From Planctomycetaceae bacterium (GTDB lineage: Bacteria; Planctomycetota; Planctomycetia; Planctomycetales; Planctomycetaceae): a DNA stretch of 64,000 bases. Location of the stretch: assembly GCA_021732785.1 (NCBI GenBank), contig JAKFUG010000055.1, positions 1 through 64,000 of the forward strand. The letters run 5' to 3'. Positions 39,167-52,465 of this stretch are shown one piece after another (the first letter of the stretch is position 1; each line of letters begins with the position of its first letter). The position numbers and the translations under genes are program-made. The notes under the pieces were generated by a model. It was not told where the DNA came from, searched no databases, and worked only from the letters and a program-made list of their open reading frames with translations.

Positions 39167-39261
39167 GTTCTGTCCGATCCTGATAGAATTGACGTAGAGC
39201 ATAGACGCGACTTCTCACGAATGGGTTCGGAAAAAGCCGTTGGAACAAAGGTGTGCAGTTC

Positions 39262-40119
39262 ATGGACTTCGATCTGGTGGTTTCAGAGCTGACTGAAAGA
39301 GCCCACCAGAATGTTGCGCAACGGTTGGAATTCCTGCGAAACCGGTGTCCCGCGATCGTTGCGCAAATCCATCGGGATCGGGAGCCGGATGGACCGTTTG
39401 CGTACTGGGGACAATCGCTCAACACGGACGAAATTGCGGATCACACGATTGTCGAACGCCCGATTTTAGAAACGCTGGCAAAGGCCGCGAACCTGAAGAT
39501 GTCCCTGACCTATCCGCATGCCGGCGTGCAGCATACTTATGGGTATCTCTTCAGCAGCATTCAAACACCGTACGGAAAAAAGCGCGAGCGGTGGATCGAT
39601 GGAAGTCTTGAACGAGCTTTTCGTCAGCCGGCGGAAACATTCGGTCCCTTCCCTCAAGAGGGAACCCTATTAGCGAATGCGACATGGCTGGCGGGACATT
39701 TTGCGTTCAGGAAGGACACCTTCATAACACGGTTGCATGTTCGGCTGCGGGCACGGATTGCCGAGTCACTGCTTGAAATTCAATGGGATCGTTACCGATC
39801 TCAACGATTCACGGAGTCCACCCAGTTCTTGGATGGAGCCACTCTGGTTACGATTGTTCTGCAATCGGACATTATTTTTATTGGCCACCAGGGAAACCAA
39901 GGGCCGAACCCGTATTTGCTGGTCTATTCCACTCAGGATTCGCGAAAGAGCCATCCGGAACTCATAACGCTGTTCACCGTATCGGAATCATTTGTCGAAG
40001 CGATTCACACCCGCGCCAAGCAACGGAAGATCGCGGATGTCCGTCCGCGTTACAACACGTATATTCCCGGCTTTCCCGCAACGCCTCAGTTCGGCACTTG
40101 CCAACTCGAAGAACCATGA
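39262..40119 (+). CDS. Unrecognised 285-residue protein
   Basis: About 285 residues from the ATG at 39262 (a GTG at 39253 is in frame). No membrane span, signal peptide or familiar nucleotide-binding motif. Visible features are a helical N-terminus (SELTERAHQNVAQRLEFLRNRCPAIV), a Tyr/His-rich segment (SLTYPHAGVQHTYGYLFSSIQTPYGKKRERW) and an alternating hydrophobic region (LVTIVLQSDIIFIGHQ). Its base composition is somewhat richer in A+T than the flanking housekeeping genes. It is convergent with the Pycsar-effector-like gene (15 bases between stops), so it is not an obvious operon partner. Confidence 0.6.
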   Translation: MDFDLVVSELTERAHQNVAQRLEFLRNRCPAIVAQIHRDREPDGPFAYWGQSLNTDEIADHTIVERPILETLAKAANLKMSLTYPHAGVQHTYGYLFSSIQTPYGKKRERWIDGSLERAFRQPAETFGPFPQEGTLLANATWLAGHFAFRKDTFITRLHVRLRARIAESLLEIQWDRYRSQRFTESTQFLDGATLVTIVLQSDIIFIGHQGNQGPNPYLLVYSTQDSRKSHPELITLFTVSESFVEAIHTRAKQRKIADVRPRYNTYIPGFPATPQFGTCQLEEP

Positions 40120-40134
40120 ACAGCAATGCATCGA

Positions 40135-40803
40135 TCAGAATTGGATTGCGATCAAGTAGGCTAATGCCGCCAGGCCACTGAGCCCCATTAGAAAAATCGA
40201 ACGACTGACATGCGTGTACTTTGCCCCGGATATATGCGAGTCGATCAGGAGGCACGCCGCGACTTCCTTTCGCAGACCATGATCTCCCATTCGTTCGCAT
40301 TCATCGATAAATTTTTCAGAGTCATCCAATTTGAAAGCCGCACAGATCGCGGCAGGATGAAAATGTGATGCGTTACCGAGTGCCGGATGCCGACCCTTGC
40401 GTCGGTAGGGTGAAATACAACGAAAGGCAAAAATTCCCGATAGCAATGTGAGAGTGACCCAAATCGAAAACAACAAGATGACCATCGTCGTCCACCATGT
40501 GGTCGGATGCGGCGTTTTCTCTCCCAGATATATTTTGAGTGTCGGAATCACGAGTCCCGCGATGGCCCCGCCCACCGTCAAGATTACCGCCGCTTTCGCA
40601 TCCGCGAAACGGATCCATTCGGCAATCACATGGTATCCGTCGATCAGGTTTGCCGTTTCCAGATTCGACGCCACGACTCCAGTCGAAGTCTCTTGCACGA
40701 CTTTCTCAACTGTCAAAGCTTCAGTGCTGTTTGACATGAATCGCCCATAAAAATAGCTGTCTGAGTCTTTTTGACCGATGTCGGGAGTACTCTTTTCCGT
40801 CAT
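40135..40803 (-). CDS. Pycsar-type membrane effector (DUF5706), orphan
   Basis: About 222 residues from the ATG at 40803; the in-frame ATG at 40737 is an alternative, and the frame further upstream is not conserved. It matches the DUF5706 (PycTM) layout: NLIDGYHVIAEWIRFADAKAAVILTVGGAIAGLV (the family's AD-x-KA motif entering span 1), span 2 WTTMVILLFSIWVTLTLLSGIFAF, a loop with HPAAICAAFKLDDSEKFIDEC, then SHISGAKYTHVSRSIFLMGLSGL and span 3. In known Pycsar defence the effector disrupts the membrane on binding cCMP or cUMP made by a neighbouring cyclase. No cyclase is visible here. Confidence 0.78.
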   Translation of the reverse strand: MTEKSTPDIGQKDSDSYFYGRFMSNSTEALTVEKVVQETSTGVVASNLETANLIDGYHVIAEWIRFADAKAAVILTVGGAIAGLVIPTLKIYLGEKTPHPTTWWTTMVILLFSIWVTLTLLSGIFAFRCISPYRRKGRHPALGNASHFHPAAICAAFKLDDSEKFIDECERMGDHGLRKEVAACLLIDSHISGAKYTHVSRSIFLMGLSGLAALAYLIAIQF

Positions 40804-41315
40804 GGGATTCAGGGGGATTCTACACGCAATACTTTTGGGAGTCGATGAAGCCAGACCATCGATGTGGGTACGTAGCGCATCATCCTGGTTTGCAACGTGC
40901 CGAACAGGCGATTTTAAGAAGAATTCTGCGTGCGACCGGAAGACGATTAGGTGAAACTCGAATTCAAGTCGATCCGCCGCTCGTTGACTTTCGAAAGACA
41001 CCCGCGGAAGGCGGAACGTTCGCGAATCACACGAGGAAACACGGAGTGACGCTTGAGCCGTGGTCTCGCTGGGCGTCAACGCGGGTTGGAATGAGTCTTC
41101 GATCGAAAGCGCACTCTCGATCCCGTCAACTCCTTCGTTCCCGCGCCGTTGCCGAGCGAGCGCCGCGGCGGAATCCGCGTCCTGCAGAGTGTTTTCACAT
41201 GCTGCTGCCACCGCGGCGAACCGCAGTGACAGCCGATTTCACGATCGTCCGTCTCCCTTGGGCTGCATGGTGGACCTGTCCATAAGACAGGCCCGGTCAA
41301 GTCGGTGAAAGCCGA
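40804..41315. other. 512-bp stretch without a supported gene
   Basis: Between the Pycsar-effector-like gene and the tRNA cluster. A 146-codon frame on the plus strand (40845-41285) and the upstream extension of the effector frame both lack protein-like composition. I see no repeat or recognisable regulatory element. Confidence 0.6.
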
Positions 41316-41387
41316 CGTGTGGTACGGGAATCGAACCCGCGACAGCCAGAGTGTGAATCTGGTGCTCTACCGTTGAGCTAACCCGCT
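41316..41387 (-). tRNA. tRNA-Val(CAC)-like gene with unpaired acceptor stem
   Basis: Read on the minus strand: D stem GCTC/GAGC with loop AACGGTA, anticodon stem CCAGA/TCTGG with loop TTCACAC (anticodon CAC, valine), variable CTGTC, T stem GCGGG/CCCGT with loop TTCGATT. All core arms are sound. The acceptor stem is not: AGCGGGT at the 5' end against ACCACAC at the 3' end pairs in only the inner 3 of 7 positions. No CCA is encoded. It may be a degraded or recombined tRNA gene, or one edited after transcription. Confidence 0.6.
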
Positions 41388-41493
41388 CCCTTGAGTTCCG
41401 GTCAGAACCCATGTCCGGAACAGACGCAACCCAACCCTGCCGGGGGACGCGGCTGCCGCTGGACGGAGACATCAATGGAGCATTCCTTCAAAG

Positions 41494-41565
41494 AGACGCC
41501 GGTGGGAGTCGAACCCACGGAATGCGGCTTTGCAGGCCGCCGCCACGCCGTGTGACTTCAGCGTC
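41494..41565 (-). tRNA. tRNA-Cys(GCA)
   Basis: 72-nt gene on the minus strand. Acceptor GACGCTG/CGGCGTC pairs fully (one wobble), D stem GTCA/TGGC, anticodon arm GCGGC-CTGCAAA-GCCGC (anticodon GCA), T arm GTGGG-TTCGACT-CCCAC, discriminator U. CCA is not encoded. It lies between the tRNA-Arg and tRNA-Val-like genes on the same strand. Confidence 0.93.
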
Positions 41566-41716
41566 GAAAGAGTCGAGAGCTAAGAGTCCAGAGCCGAGAG
41601 CCAGAAAAAAGGTTCGCGGGATTGGCATTCTCTGGTTCTTGCCTCTCAACTCACCGCTTAAACTGCCGACGAGAGGGCGCACCGTGCATTCGTGGGTGTT
41701 TAAGCCATAAAACAAA

Positions 41717-41790
<74 letters not shown>

Positions 41791-42217
41791 AAAGACAAAA
41801 CGGGCGGTCATCAGCCTCACCGACGACAGGCATCGACAGGCTACCGCGAGTAACGGTTCGTTCACGCCCGTCGTAATTTACTCATGGCACCCGTTTGGCA
41901 CCAGCGTGAGTGGCTTGTGTCGAACCGGAGAAGCCGTTGAGTCAAAATGCGCAGCGGGTACACGTATGAAGAGGACGACCGGCATGTTCAAACTGTCCCC
42001 ATACCAAGACGCAGATGCCAGTGAAACTACCGATATCGCGGTCATTCTTGGCGACCAAGACGGTTCACGATGTCCACGTCCAGTGACGCTATTCTCGTCT
42101 GTGAAAGAGGTTAGGACACTTCATCAAAAGCCCGCAGTCTCTTCGGCATGTCGATTGCGTTAGGGCTTCCCCTGTTACTGAACGCGCTCGGAGCACGCGT
42201 CGCCTTGAGGAAGTCTG
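41791..42217. other. 427-bp stretch without a supported gene
   Basis: Divergent region between the tRNA cluster (leftward) and the HAD gene (rightward). Short frames here show no family or composition signal. It should carry the promoters of both units, but I cannot point to convincing -35/-10 pairs. Confidence 0.6.
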
Positions 42218-46334: not shown

Positions 46335-46565
46335 ATGTCCACATCATCGCCGACACTTCTGGAAAGCTTCCACGAGTTTGTAGGCAGGCAACTCGCTTCC
46401 TCGACGAATGAGCAGATGTCACCCGAGGAAGCTCTCGTACAGTGGCGTGAGCAAGAAGAGACGATCGCCGCGATCCGTGAAGGACTTGCGGATGTGGAGG
46501 TTGGCCGAGTGCGGCCTGCTGAAGATGTGATCCGCGAACTGCGCGCCGCGACCAAACCGAGTTGA
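46335..46565 (+). CDS. Probable antitoxin of a ParE-type module
   Basis: A 76-residue acidic protein (MSTSSPTLLESFHEFVGRQL, EEALVQWREQEETIAAIREGLADVEVGRVRPAEDVIREL). The C-terminal segment with GLADVEVGRVRPAEDVIREL matches the tail of ParD/RHH-type antitoxins that wraps the toxin. Its stop lies 2 bases before the toxin ATG, the usual arrangement. The antitoxin is intact although the toxin frame is broken. Confidence 0.75.
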   Translation: MSTSSPTLLESFHEFVGRQLASSTNEQMSPEEALVQWREQEETIAAIREGLADVEVGRVRPAEDVIRELRAATKPS

Positions 46566-46567
46566 TC

Positions 46568-46895
46568 ATGCGGGTTCATCTCTCGCGCCGCGCAGAACGT
46601 GACCTCCGCACGATTCATGAATGGATTCGAGCTCGGTCTCCCATTGGCGCGGAACGGTGGTTGTCAGTGTTTGAAGCTGCCATTTTGCGCCTGTCGCAGT
46701 CCGCAGCGGAGTGCCAGTGTGCTGATGAGTCTGAGAGGGTCGGCATCGAACTTGCAACAACAGTCATTCAAGACCCGGCACGGATTACCTTATCGGCTCG
46801 TCTTCACGATCCATGAAGACATCGTGGAGGTTGTTGCAATCCGCGGATCGGGCCAGGATTGGTTGCGACCCGATGAAATCGACATCGCGGAATGA
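46568..46895 (+). pseudogene. ParE-type toxin, frameshifted
   Basis: The first frame from ATG 46568 reads a ParE/RelE-type toxin start: MRVHLSRRAERDLRTIHEWI, ARSPIGAERWLSVFEAAILRL, ADESERVGIEL. The family continuation (QQQSFKTRHGLPYRLVFTI, EDIVEVVAIRGSGQDWLRPDEI) appears in another frame ending at 46895. Removing one base at about 46750-46752 (GAACTTGCAA to GAATTGCAA) restores a single 108-residue toxin. Either the toxin was inactivated recently or the base is a sequence error. A programmed shift is possible but no slippery run is present. Confidence 0.8.
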
Positions 46896-49202: not shown

Positions 49203-50357
49203 TCATGCCGCGATGCCCGACACGGTTTCCACCGGCGATGATACCGCATCAGTACGTTCACCAGAGCCGGCATTCGATGACGGCGAACGCAACAAACTGC
49301 CGACGATTCCCAGCAGCAACAAACTCCCCACGAGATTGCTGCCGCCAGCGCTGAGCAACGGATGCGAAATCCCCTTCGGCGGCACCATTGCAGTCACCAC
49401 GGCGACATTCATCAGGGCCTGTACCACAAACATCGTCAACAACGTAAAGCCGGTACGAAACGCGAACGAGCGGAAATCGAGCGCCGACAGCAGACGGACA
49501 CCGGAGAGATACAGTCCACTCCATACGGCGAGCAAGCCCAATGTGCCCACGAGGCCGAGTTCCTCCCCCATCACCGCGAAGACAAAATCGGTGTTCGCTT
49601 CGGGAAGAAAGCTGAGTTTCTGAAAGCCTTTTCCCAAGCCTTCACCCCACAGACCGCCGGCTCCCAGTGAGACGAGCGATTGCCGGATTTGATACGGCGC
49701 GGCGTCGAGATCGCTCCATGTTTCTAGGAAACCAACGATGCGGCGTTGTTGATACGGTTTCAGGAAGAGGAAACCGAGCCCCATCGGAAAGACGAGCAGT
49801 AGCCCCGCTGCGAAATGCCGCAGCGGCCAACCGCTCACCCACAGGGCGACAACGGTTCCCAGCACGATAAACGCCGCAGTACCGAGATCGGGTTCGATGA
49901 GCACCAGCGGTGCCGCGATGAACATGGGCGATAACACCCACAGCAATTGACGCCAATTCCGTGGCTCATCGCGCACGGATCGCGAGAGCAGCCAGCACGT
50001 CATCATCGGCACAACAATCTTGGCGATCTCTGAGGGCTGCACCGACACCCCGGCGATGCGAATCCACCGATGCGCCCCTTTCACCTTCGTGCCGAGTCCG
50101 GGAATCAGCACGGCGATCAACAGCAAGACCGTCAGCCCGAACCAGACCGGTGCCGTCATGCGCCAGAATTTTTCCGACCGCGTGAACGCCACGGTCGCCA
50201 GCGCAATTCCCACCGCCGCCGCCGCGAGATGCCGCCGCAGATGCACCCACTCAAACTCCGTGGGCCGCGACGTGATGCTGGAACTGTAGACCATGAGCAG
50301 CCCCAGCCCCAGCAACACCCCCACCAGCGCCAAAAACACCTTCCGCGGCAGGTCCAC
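49203..50357 (-). CDS. ftsW: FtsW/RodA-family lipid II polymerase
   Basis: A 384-residue membrane protein from a GTG at 50357, which has GGAG 8 bases upstream. About 10 spans. SEDS family signatures are present: GAHRWIRIAGVSVQPSEIAKI, LIEPDLGTAAFIVLG, YQIRQSLVSLGAGGLWGEGLGKGFQKLSFLPEANTDFVFAVMGEELGL (with the catalytic-type Asp) and VPPKGISHPLLSAGGSNL. The tail is Ser/Gly/Glu-rich. The position next to murG, as in classical dcw clusters, favours FtsW over RodA. Notable because many planctomycetes lack FtsZ. Confidence 0.93.
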   Translation of the reverse strand: MDLPRKVFLALVGVLLGLGLLMVYSSSITSRPTEFEWVHLRRHLAAAAVGIALATVAFTRSEKFWRMTAPVWFGLTVLLLIAVLIPGLGTKVKGAHRWIRIAGVSVQPSEIAKIVVPMMTCWLLSRSVRDEPRNWRQLLWVLSPMFIAAPLVLIEPDLGTAAFIVLGTVVALWVSGWPLRHFAAGLLLVFPMGLGFLFLKPYQQRRIVGFLETWSDLDAAPYQIRQSLVSLGAGGLWGEGLGKGFQKLSFLPEANTDFVFAVMGEELGLVGTLGLLAVWSGLYLSGVRLLSALDFRSFAFRTGFTLLTMFVVQALMNVAVVTAMVPPKGISHPLLSAGGSNLVGSLLLLGIVGSLLRSPSSNAGSGERTDAVSSPVETVSGIAA

Positions 50358-50527
50358 GGGCAGACGCTCCAGAATCGGTAAATAACGATAACAATTCAGG
50401 TTCGTCGGTGTAACGGGGCGGCGGCTTCAGTCAATTTCAAACTTGAGACGGAATCGAGGCTGAGTAGTGGTGGCCAGATTGTCTATGAGGGTGCTTTGCG
50501 AATTCCGGAAGACTTTAATCCCAGACT

Positions 50528-51217
50528 CTAAAGGTCAAACAGGCGGCGTATCCACCGAATGAACGAGTTGGCAGGTTCCAGTTGAAAATCGAACTTGCCG
50601 GCACTCATGGCCTGACCGTAAGTCATCGCCGGTTCTTCTTGCCACGCCAGCCAGCAGGCCAATTCGGCTTTGGAACGATGTGCTTCGGGAAACTCAGCGG
50701 CATGTTTTGTGCGTGCCTGACTTGTGGCATGGCGAGCGTGAATGAACAACGCATTTGCAGGACTTGTTAGTGAACACAAGAACTCTTCAATGGCCCCAAC
50801 GGCCTGGTTATTTGGCATGATCCAGACGCCGATACGCGGCCCGTTGGATGAAATCTGTCCGACAAATCCATCCGACTTCAATTCCAGTGGATCAACAACG
50901 CCAAGATTCTGAAATCGATAAGAAATGGCTTGCCATGTTGGGGTGCATCCCGGTGGATCGCCCGACAGACTTCCATCATTCTGAAGATAGCCATCGGCAT
51001 CAAGGACATAACCGATGGCAGTCCGCCCGGATTCTTTCCATCGCTCGGGCATGTCATCGAGCAGGCTTTGCTTTCCCTGCAAGGCTTTGATGCTGAGGGG
51101 CGAAGTTTGATCGTCTAAACCAGTAACAAAAACACCACTCTTGAGAAGCAAATGCAGGATGGCATGATAGTCGTTCGGCCCCTCGACAACCAATTGTTTC
51201 GCGGGTGGTGCGGCCAT
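50528..51217 (-). CDS. DUF3226 TOPRIM-like nuclease, partner of the ATPase
   Basis: A 229-residue protein from the ATG at 51217, which shares one base with the ATPase stop (TGATG), so translation is coupled. It matches DUF3226: LVVEGPNDYHAILHLLL (TOPRIM Glu), IGYVLDADGYLQNDGS (DxD), the family block GVWIMPNNQAVGAIEEFL, and SKAELACWLAWQEEP and SFIRWIRRLF. The domain is a TOPRIM nuclease fold related to the C-terminal half of OLD proteins. Here it is a separate chain beside an OLD-type ATPase. Confidence 0.85.
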   Translation of the reverse strand: MAAPPAKQLVVEGPNDYHAILHLLLKSGVFVTGLDDQTSPLSIKALQGKQSLLDDMPERWKESGRTAIGYVLDADGYLQNDGSLSGDPPGCTPTWQAISYRFQNLGVVDPLELKSDGFVGQISSNGPRIGVWIMPNNQAVGAIEEFLCSLTSPANALFIHARHATSQARTKHAAEFPEAHRSKAELACWLAWQEEPAMTYGQAMSAGKFDFQLEPANSFIRWIRRLFDL

Positions 51218-52269
51218 CAACGCACCTCGATTTCGTGATTCACGATCACGGACAGTGCGTCGCCTCCAAAGTGGACAGCCTCTTCGAAACGACGATCAAT
51301 CCGAAAGATCGCCACTTCGTCAGCGAGTGCAGGTTCGTTCTCGACGGCTTCGGCCAACGCCCGGATGCAATCGAGACTATGAGTCGTCGCGAACACCTGC
51401 ACGTCCAGTTCAGCCGCCGTTTTCAAGACCATCCGCCACATGTCTGACAACCGCAAATAGTGGAGGCCAGTGTCGATTTCGTCGATCAACAGGCACCCAT
51501 TTCTGATTGAAGCAATTGCAATTGCGATCGACAGGAGTGACGACGTTCCAGCTCCATACCGCGCTAACGTATCACGCTCACCGTTGATCTCAATCAGGAC
51601 GTCTCGGCGATGCTCGGTTGCTGGAGAAAAAACGATTCCAGTAATGCCTTCGTGCAACACTCGCATGACTTGAATGGCGATGTGTTCCCTGCTTGATTTC
51701 AACAATGCTTGCCAAAGCCCGCTAAGGTCGTAAGAAGTCAAACCCCCTGCCGGGACGAATACGAACATGGGGGTGCTTTCTTGCCCTTGAGGAGTCCATC
51801 GCATTCCACTGATCCAAGGACCAACGAGCCGACCGTGTCCATCCATCCGTATCGAGGACGAAGTTGAGCCATTGAGCGTAAAGACCAGTTCAGCAGGTTC
51901 TGAAGCTGTCGGGGCTTGAACACGGATTTTCAGGTTTCGATGATCGTTACCAGAACTAAAAAAATGGATTGGAGTAAGCTCATCATAATCTTGTGCAACT
52001 TCACCGAAGTGGAATAGTGATCGACCATCATAAACAGTGTGGTATGCTGGTCCACCGGGGATCGGGATCGATTCAATATCCTCACGTAATTCAAGCGTCC
52101 GAAGCAGTGCTCCCATGTCTCCTTCTGAGGCTAACAGTGCCACCGCTTCCAGCACGCTCGTTTTGCCGCAGTTGTTGTCGCCCACGAGAAGATTGACGCG
52201 GGCGAGGTTCGAGAGCTTGTACTTCGCGAAGCTGCGGTAGTTTTCGATGGTCAGATCGTGGAGCAGCAC
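51217..52269 (-). CDS. OLD/RecF-like AAA ATPase of a split ATPase-TOPRIM pair
   Basis: About 350 residues from a GTG at 52269 (AGGA 9 bases upstream); the open frame to 52401 lacks family residues. The start LLHDLTIENYRSFAKYKLSNLARVNLLVGDNNCGKTSVLEAVALL is typical of AAA_15/AAA_21 ATPases (Walker A GDNNCGKT, about 27-34). Later blocks are ARYGAGTSSLLSIAIAIASI (signature-like), Walker B GCLLIDEIDTGLHY and the H-loop ATTHSLDCI. Base composition looks somewhat more A+T-rich than neighbours. The closest described comparisons are OLD, Gabija GajA and PARIS AriA/AriB; a defence role is an inference. Confidence 0.85.
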   Translation of the reverse strand: MLLHDLTIENYRSFAKYKLSNLARVNLLVGDNNCGKTSVLEAVALLASEGDMGALLRTLELREDIESIPIPGGPAYHTVYDGRSLFHFGEVAQDYDELTPIHFFSSGNDHRNLKIRVQAPTASEPAELVFTLNGSTSSSIRMDGHGRLVGPWISGMRWTPQGQESTPMFVFVPAGGLTSYDLSGLWQALLKSSREHIAIQVMRVLHEGITGIVFSPATEHRRDVLIEINGERDTLARYGAGTSSLLSIAIAIASIRNGCLLIDEIDTGLHYLRLSDMWRMVLKTAAELDVQVFATTHSLDCIRALAEAVENEPALADEVAIFRIDRRFEEAVHFGGDALSVIVNHEIEVR

Positions 52270-52465
52270 GGCGGCGGTCCTGCCGGGGGATGCGGATTGT
52301 CTGAGATCAGTATCGACCAGATCGCCGCGGTTGTCTACCGGCAGCGTACGGCGACATCCGATCGATCCCTGCGATGACACCGAACCGGCGGCAAGGTTCA
52401 AGGTGCTGAATTTGCCACGAAGCCACGCCGTGGAGGGACTCGCGGACTCGTTCCACCCTACATGC

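What the first reader, a model, noticed from the sequence alone, without database searches (positions are those of the whole stretch)
50528..52269. Split OLD-like ATPase plus DUF3226 TOPRIM nuclease: candidate defence pair
Seen: an ATPase with GDNNCGKT, DEIDTGLH and an ATTHSLD H-loop is followed, sharing one base (TGATG), by a 229-residue protein with TOPRIM motifs VEGPND and DAD and the DUF3226 block GVWIMPNN. Known: OLD and GajA carry ATPase and TOPRIM nuclease in one chain; PARIS splits them, with a DUF4435-type second subunit. Inference: this is a two-subunit relative that swaps in DUF3226. Flanking genes are ordinary chromosomal genes, so the pair looks inserted as a cassette. To my knowledge DUF3226 pairs have no settled function.
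Basis: partly seen in the sequence, partly recalled or inferred. Interest (0 to 1): 0.8.

Follow-up and report, generated by a model that had tools for sequence, protein, structure and literature searches.

The report
Two-gene ATPase–TOPRIM phage-defence candidate
This is a mobile two-gene cassette, already catalogued as a candidate bacterial immune system (PDC-M38), in which an ATPase probably restrains a nuclease that is released to shut the cell down when a virus attacks; nobody appears to have tested it, so its value is as a well-defined target for experiment.

Summary
On the minus strand an OLD/RecF-type ABC ATPase (51217–52269) overlaps by one base (TGATG) a 229-aa DUF3226 protein (50528–51217). 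Both halves hit the PADLOC candidate system PDC-M38 (M38A E 2e-55, M38B E 4e-37), so the pair is a catalogued, apparently untested, candidate rather than a new discovery. A confident AlphaFold model (pLDDT 90.8) shows that DUF3226 has the OLD-type TOPRIM nuclease fold. Catalytic-type residues E12, D16, D73 and K183 are invariant in 64 family members. The ATPase gene lies directly upstream of the nuclease gene in 87 of 88 loci with both genes whole; the family spans at least 15 phyla. The pair rides on small mobilizable plasmids, beside prophage tail genes and next to integrases. It is patchy among relatives (27/297 genomes of the class). Known defence genes are not clearly enriched near chromosomal copies. 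Best reading: a split OLD-like abortive-infection module, AbiL/PARIS-like in mechanism but neither system by membership, in which the ATPase holds a TOPRIM nuclease (likely an RNase) until infection. The window's ATPase has a degenerate ABC signature (GAG..S instead of G[D/E]G..R), so this copy may be altered or decaying.

The parts
51217..52269 (-). M38A: OLD/AbiLi-type ABC ATPase, 350 aa (GTG start). Walker A GDNNCGKT (K36), Walker B/D-loop LLIDEIDTGLH (D263, E264), H-loop ATTHS (H297), C-terminal EIEVR; atypical ABC signature GAGTSS
   Evidence: translation; Pfam AAA_15 E 9.7e-22; PDC-M38A E 2.4e-55, AbiLi E 1.4e-44; motif counts over 87 pairs
50528..51217 (-). M38B: DUF3226 protein, 229 aa, OLD-type TOPRIM nuclease; E12, D16 (VEGPND), D73 and D75 (DAD), GVWIMPNN block, K183
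   Evidence: Pfam DUF3226 E 2.6e-44; PDC-M38B E 3.7e-37; AF2 model pLDDT 90.8; fold matches to OLD TOPRIM; residue counts
51215..51219 (-). stop/start overlap TGATG, suggesting translational coupling of the two genes
   Evidence: sequence; overlap or a few bases' gap in most homologous loci
50371..52463 (.). stretch without homology to the nearest species at either flank (limits of the acquired/variable segment); GC about 52-53% against 59%
   Evidence: blastn against same-genus G002 stops at 50370 and 52464; composition

Best explanation
A two-gene, mobile anti-phage (abortive-infection) module of the split OLD kind, catalogued as PDC-M38. The ABC ATPase (A) assembles with and restrains the DUF3226 protein (B), a two-metal OLD-type TOPRIM nuclease. 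A phage cue acting on the ATPase frees or activates the nuclease, which cuts a nucleic acid needed by the cell (most likely RNA such as tRNA, possibly DNA) and halts growth before the phage can spread. Shown here: the gene pair, its constant order and co-divergence, the TOPRIM fold (predicted model), conserved active-site residues, patchy mobile distribution. Inferred: complex formation, ATPase as sensor/inhibitor, substrate, and defence itself.
For: Both proteins match the paired models PDC-M38A/B. B's model matches OLD TOPRIM domains (6nk8 Z 10.6, rmsd 4.6, 171 residues; 6p74 Z 9.4, rmsd 4.8, 140 residues), retron Eco2 TOPRIM (Z 8.3, rmsd 4.5, 172 residues) and AriB (Z 6.7, rmsd 4.7, 163 residues), with unrelated rows at about 5-6; Foldseek probability is 0.92 for Xcc OLD. 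E12 and D16 keep the +4 spacing of OLD E400/E404 and Eco2 E374/D378, followed by DxD and a C-terminal Lys like K562; E12, D16, D73 and K183 are invariant in 64/64. A is immediately upstream of B in 87/88 loci where both are whole; distance correlation 0.80 against a permutation maximum of 0.12. 15 phyla, scattered on the tree; 27/297 genomes in the class, absent from a complete congener. Carriage on a 6.4-kb mobilizable plasmid with only replication/mobilization genes and one annotated 'tRNA modification GTPase' besides, beside BrnTA, at the end of prophage tail modules (L144 and L145) and next to integrases, once with an Mrr-like nuclease. Precedent: AAA ATPase/TOPRIM pairs AbiL and AriAB defend; AAA proteins neutralise TOPRIM_OLD toxins in E. 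coli (PMC10440598); AriB cuts tRNA (PMC12409363); the Eco2 TOPRIM is an RNase (PMC12405507).
Against: Genes within 2.5 kb of chromosomal copies are not clearly richer in defence families than genes more than 6.5 kb away, and in the window the neighbours are cell-wall and housekeeping genes. No copy among 50,697 phage records and none in E. coli genomes with one enterobacterial query. No experimental test found in the held literature. The window ATPase has lost two near-invariant signature residues, so this particular copy may not cycle ATP normally.
Confidence: 0.64

Rival explanations
1. A toxin-antitoxin (addiction) module: B is a toxic nuclease and A its neutraliser, kept for plasmid or prophage stability, with phage defence incidental.
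For: Presence on tiny plasmids carrying little else; AAA antitoxins neutralise TOPRIM_OLD toxins in E. coli (PMC10440598); F. nucleatum AbiLii alone is toxic (PMC3985639).
Against: For PARIS, deletion of either gene was non-toxic, excluding a simple TA (PMC9122126); an ABC ATPase with conserved catalytic motifs in most homologues suggests a sensor/machine rather than a passive antitoxin; AbiLi did not neutralise AbiLii.
Confidence: 0.2
2. A housekeeping DNA-repair or RNA-processing pair, RecF/RecR- or RNase M5-like, unrelated to phage.
For: A scores with RecF/SMC N-termini; the archaeal OLD protein Cran1 acts in the cell cycle, not defence (PMC12796447); neighbours in the window are housekeeping genes.
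Against: Patchy presence (27/297), absence from a complete congener, mobile carriage, broken copies, atypical composition.
Confidence: 0.08
3. The window copy itself is a decaying remnant of such a module: both frames are open but the ATPase signature is already lost. (Compatible with the best explanation for the family.)
For: A240 and S244 (P0002 numbering) where 84/87 have D/E and 81/87 have R; B has a 13-residue low-confidence insert after DAD and the longest end branch of the tree.
Against: Both frames are full length with all Walker, H-loop and TOPRIM residues and the translational overlap kept.
Confidence: 0.15

Closest known systems
PADLOC candidate PDC-M38 (M38A + M38B)
   Same: Both subunits hit the paired models; all 64 aligned B proteins hit M38B
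   Different: Nothing that separates it; the window copy is a divergent member (B at most about 40% identical to others) with an odd ABC signature
AbiL (AbiLi ATPase + AbiLii, RloB/TOPRIM_OLD) of Lactococcus
   Same: Closest validated ATPase by profile (AbiLi 151 bits); two-gene ATPase/TOPRIM architecture
   Different: Second protein is DUF3226, not AbiLii/RloB by profile (no match for P0001 at E 1; one of 64 homologues at 0.033)
PARIS (AriA + AriB, Class 4 OLD)
   Same: Split ABC ATPase and stand-alone TOPRIM nuclease; weak fold similarity of B to AriB (Z 6.7)
   Different: No DUF4435; AriA scores 78 bits against 187 for M38A; AriB does not match P0001
OLD Class 1 / Gabija GajA (Class 2)
   Same: TOPRIM fold and active-site pattern, ATPase domain type
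   Different: Those are single-chain ATPase-TOPRIM proteins, GajA with a UvrD-like helicase partner; here two chains and no helicase gene
Retron Eco2 (RT-TOPRIM)
   Same: TOPRIM effector of the same fold (Z 8.3) and E/D(+4)/DxD/K pattern
   Different: Effector fused to a reverse transcriptase, no ATPase partner

Membership tests
PDC-M38 (PADLOC candidate) | ATPase subunit matches an M38A model | tested here: met
   E 2.4e-55, 186.6 bits, best of 125 families
PDC-M38 (PADLOC candidate) | Second subunit matches an M38B model | tested here: met
   E 3.7e-37, only M38B models match
PDC-M38 (PADLOC candidate) | The two genes adjacent | tested here: met
   One-base overlap in the window; 87/88 loci adjacent
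PDC-M38 (PADLOC candidate) | Antiviral activity | not testable with these tools
   No experiment found in the held papers
PARIS (AriA/AriB) | Second gene contains DUF4435 (PF14491) | tested here: not met
   P0001 matches only DUF3226 in Pfam at E<=1; no AriB match in PADLOC. The defining rule is quoted from PMC9122126
PARIS (AriA/AriB) | ATPase and TOPRIM on separate adjacent genes | tested here: met
AbiL | ATPase of the AbiLi family | tested here: inconclusive
   AbiLi 151 bits, but M38A fits better at 187 bits
AbiL | Second protein AbiLii (RloB-type) | tested here: not met
   No AbiLii match to P0001 at E<=1; weak in 1 of 64 homologues
OLD family Class 1/2 (incl. Gabija) | ATPase and TOPRIM fused in one chain | tested here: not met
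   Two separate ORFs
Gabija | UvrD-like helicase gene next door | tested here: not met
   Neighbours are FtsW (288 bits) and an AAA/MoxR-like protein
OLD-type TOPRIM nuclease (fold level) | OLD TOPRIM fold | tested here: met
   Predicted model: Z 10.6 over 171 residues to BpOLD, 9.4 over 140 to TsOLD; unrelated rows at 5-6
OLD-type TOPRIM nuclease (fold level) | Metal A residues E + DxD, metal B acid at E+4, catalytic Lys/Arg | tested here: met
   E12, D16, D73, K183 in 64/64; D75 is D in 52, N in 11, E in 1; reference residues from PMC7049728. Equivalence of K183 to K562 is by position, not by superposition
OLD-type TOPRIM nuclease (fold level) | Metal B S/T-x-E | tested here: inconclusive
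   The MP[D/N]N block sits at a comparable spacing, but no residue-level superposition was available
OLD-type TOPRIM nuclease (fold level) | Nuclease activity | not testable with these tools
   Needs biochemistry

The most novel reading that the evidence does not exclude
DUF3226 proteins are the effectors of a distinct, widespread class of split OLD immunity (ATPase sensor of AbiLi type, effector with its own 'MP[D/N]N' active-site variant and a target unlike AriB's), spread across at least 15 phyla by plasmids and prophages.
Probability: 0.4. Interest if true: 0.62.

Novelty: new member of a known kind. Interest (0 to 1): 0.45.

Why it matters
DUF3226 has no described function in the held literature. 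Placing it as an OLD-type TOPRIM nuclease with a fixed ATPase partner turns a 'domain of unknown function' into a testable immune effector and adds a third split ATPase/TOPRIM lineage beside AbiL and PARIS. Intact pairs on small plasmids of ordinary laboratory-tractable genera make the test easy.

Tried and rejected
Single-sequence AlphaFold of B gave no usable model (pLDDT 31.6); the 64-sequence alignment solved this. Sequence searches against the PDB found no significant relative of B (with a profile only weak TOPRIM hits, 1t6t E 0.24 and AriB E 1.3). Viral structure library: no convincing match. Defence-island association tested by comparing PADLOC hits among 135 near and 140 far neighbour genes: no clear enrichment, so I do not claim it. 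Clean occupied/empty site: not obtainable, because in the nearest species the two flanks are 154 kb apart and most other relatives examined keep mraY-ftsW together. Search for flanking repeats, tRNAs or RNA families at the site: nothing notable. Promoter and terminator scans not clearly above shuffles. AbiLii in 294 genomes of the phylum: nothing rang, uninformative. E. coli genomes searched with one enterobacterial DNA copy: none.

Full report
What is there. On the minus strand of the window a 350-aa ABC ATPase gene (52269 to 51217) is followed by a 229-aa gene (51217 to 50528); stop and start share one base. Pfam gives DUF3226 at E 2.6e-44 and AAA_15 at 9.7e-22. PADLOC, a library of known and candidate defence proteins, gives PDC-M38A (E 2.4e-55) and PDC-M38B (E 3.7e-37) as best hits of the two proteins. 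The pair is therefore an instance of a catalogued candidate system. PDCs come from a 'guilt-by-embedding' survey and most are untested (PMC12988326). No held paper mentions DUF3226, PF11536 or PDC-M38.

What DUF3226 is. Using 63 homologues from other genomes, AlphaFold2 gave a confident model (mean pLDDT 90.8). Foldseek's most probable matches are OLD C-terminal domains (6njw, probability 0.92; 6nk8 0.87; 6p74 0.82). VIA-align gives PH0156 (2p62, uncharacterised) Z 12.3, BpOLD Z 10.6, TsOLD 9.4, retron Eco2 TOPRIM 8.3 and AriB 6.7, with unrelated rows at 5-6. The conserved residues fit: E12, G13, D16, D73 and K183 are invariant in 64 sequences, and D75 is D in 52, N in 11, E in 1. In BpOLD metal A is held by E400/D455/D457, metal B by E404/T506/E508, and K562 is catalytic (PMC7049728); in Eco2 the set is E374/D460/D462, D378/S513/E515, K562 (PMC12405507). 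The E and +4 acid, the DxD and a C-terminal lysine are all found here. The third metal-B position, perhaps in the family-specific MP[D/N]N block, is inferred only.

What the ATPase is. It carries Walker A, Walker B/D-loop and H-loop residues conserved across 87 sequences. By profile it is nearest to M38A (187 bits), then AbiLi (151), and far from AriA (78) and GajA (61). The A-subunit profile barely matches ATPases beside AriB-like genes of the phylum. One oddity: the ABC signature G[D/E]G..R, kept as D/E in 84/87 and R in 81/87, reads GAG..S in the window. The window's B is also the longest branch of the B tree. This copy is either specialised or starting to decay.

A fixed partnership. In all intact loci of related genomes A is directly upstream of B. 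Across 99 loci from genomes, plasmids and viral contigs, 87 of the 88 in which both genes were recovered nearly whole are adjacent in the order A-B; the other locus (L082) has the same order but an over-extended ORF call. The remainder are mostly contig edges, truncated genes, broken copies or mis-called ORFs. Pairwise distances of A and B correlate at r=0.80 against a permutation maximum of 0.12. They move and evolve as one unit.

A mobile partnership. The family lies in at least 15 phyla with labels scattered over the tree (26 changes, minimum 14). In the window's class only 27 of 297 genomes have DUF3226, and a complete member of the same genus has none. Plasmid copies include a 6.4-kb mobilizable Citrobacter plasmid whose only other annotated genes are replication and mobilization genes and one 'tRNA modification GTPase', and Acinetobacter plasmids where the pair adjoins BrnT/BrnA. 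In a Plesiomonas prophage and in two IMG/VR contigs (L144, L145) it lies at the end of the phage tail module. In two others it follows an integrase, once next to an Mrr-like nuclease and a Schlafen-domain protein. P2-type prophages and their satellites are known to carry defence cargo at fixed places (PMC9122126). Broken copies occur (L078, L098, L101, L107).

The window site. GC (52.5% against 59.4 +/- 2.0) and GC3 (0.53-0.55 against 0.69 +/- 0.06) are atypical. Alignment to the nearest species (G002) stops at 50370 and resumes at 52464. There, FtsW is preceded by a fumarase gene and the AAA gene is 154 kb away. In five of seven other relatives examined FtsW is preceded by MraY (identified by eye from the ORFs), so the pair sits at a rearranged junction of the cell-wall cluster. 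The cassette idea is supported, but no clean empty site was found.

What argues for caution. Genes within 2.5 kb of chromosomal copies were not clearly richer in defence families than genes over 6.5 kb away. The case for defence therefore rests on mobility, patchiness, architecture and homology, not on island membership. No activity has been shown.

Mechanism. By analogy to PARIS, where an AriA hexamer holds AriB until a phage trigger releases it to cut tRNA (PMC12409363), and to AAA/TOPRIM_OLD pairs in which the AAA protein neutralises the toxic TOPRIM protein in E. coli (PMC10440598), I infer that M38A senses infection and restrains M38B, a two-metal nuclease that halts growth. An RNA target is somewhat more likely than DNA, because the stand-alone and RT-fused TOPRIM immune effectors whose targets are described here (AriB, Eco2) cut RNA, whereas the single-chain OLD and Gabija proteins cut DNA. 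Probabilities: immune function about 0.7; ATPase-restrained nuclease about 0.65; RNA target about 0.45.

Membership. It meets the sequence features of PDC-M38. It fails PARIS (no DUF4435), AbiL (no AbiLii) and single-chain OLD/Gabija (separate genes, no helicase). It probably works like a split OLD module without belonging to a validated one.

Noticed in passing
window 46335-46816 (+): Small overlapping gene pair (76 aa + 84 aa); the second resembles ParE toxin (E 4e-4, just under Pfam's cut-off), so a likely ParDE-type toxin-antitoxin module 4 kb from the defence pair.
   Followed up: partly
window 49203-50357 and upstream: FtsW-MurG are detached from MraY here: in most relatives examined MraY precedes FtsW, in the closest species a fumarase does, here the M38 pair does. 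The cell-wall cluster is broken at this junction.
   Followed up: partly
window 39253-41791: Two ORFs of low GC (0.53) with no Pfam match next to tRNA-Cys and tRNA-Arg genes: a possible small insertion at a tRNA site.
   Followed up: no
window 51538-51558 (-): The ABC signature of the window's ATPase is GAGTSS where 84/87 sequences have G[D/E]G and 81/87 have R four residues on.
   Followed up: partly
L009 1111-3066 (-): A 651-aa single-chain OLD-like protein in a family relative picked up weakly by the DUF3226 model (E 5.8e-5): a sequence-level hint that DUF3226 and single-chain OLD TOPRIM domains are related.
   Followed up: no
L050 10591-11841: A second, weakly M38A-like ATPase frame directly downstream of an intact M38 pair.
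   Followed up: no
L143 5034-7654: Mrr-like restriction endonuclease and a Schlafen/AlbA_2 protein beside an M38 pair behind a phage-type integrase: perhaps a small mobile defence island.
   Followed up: no
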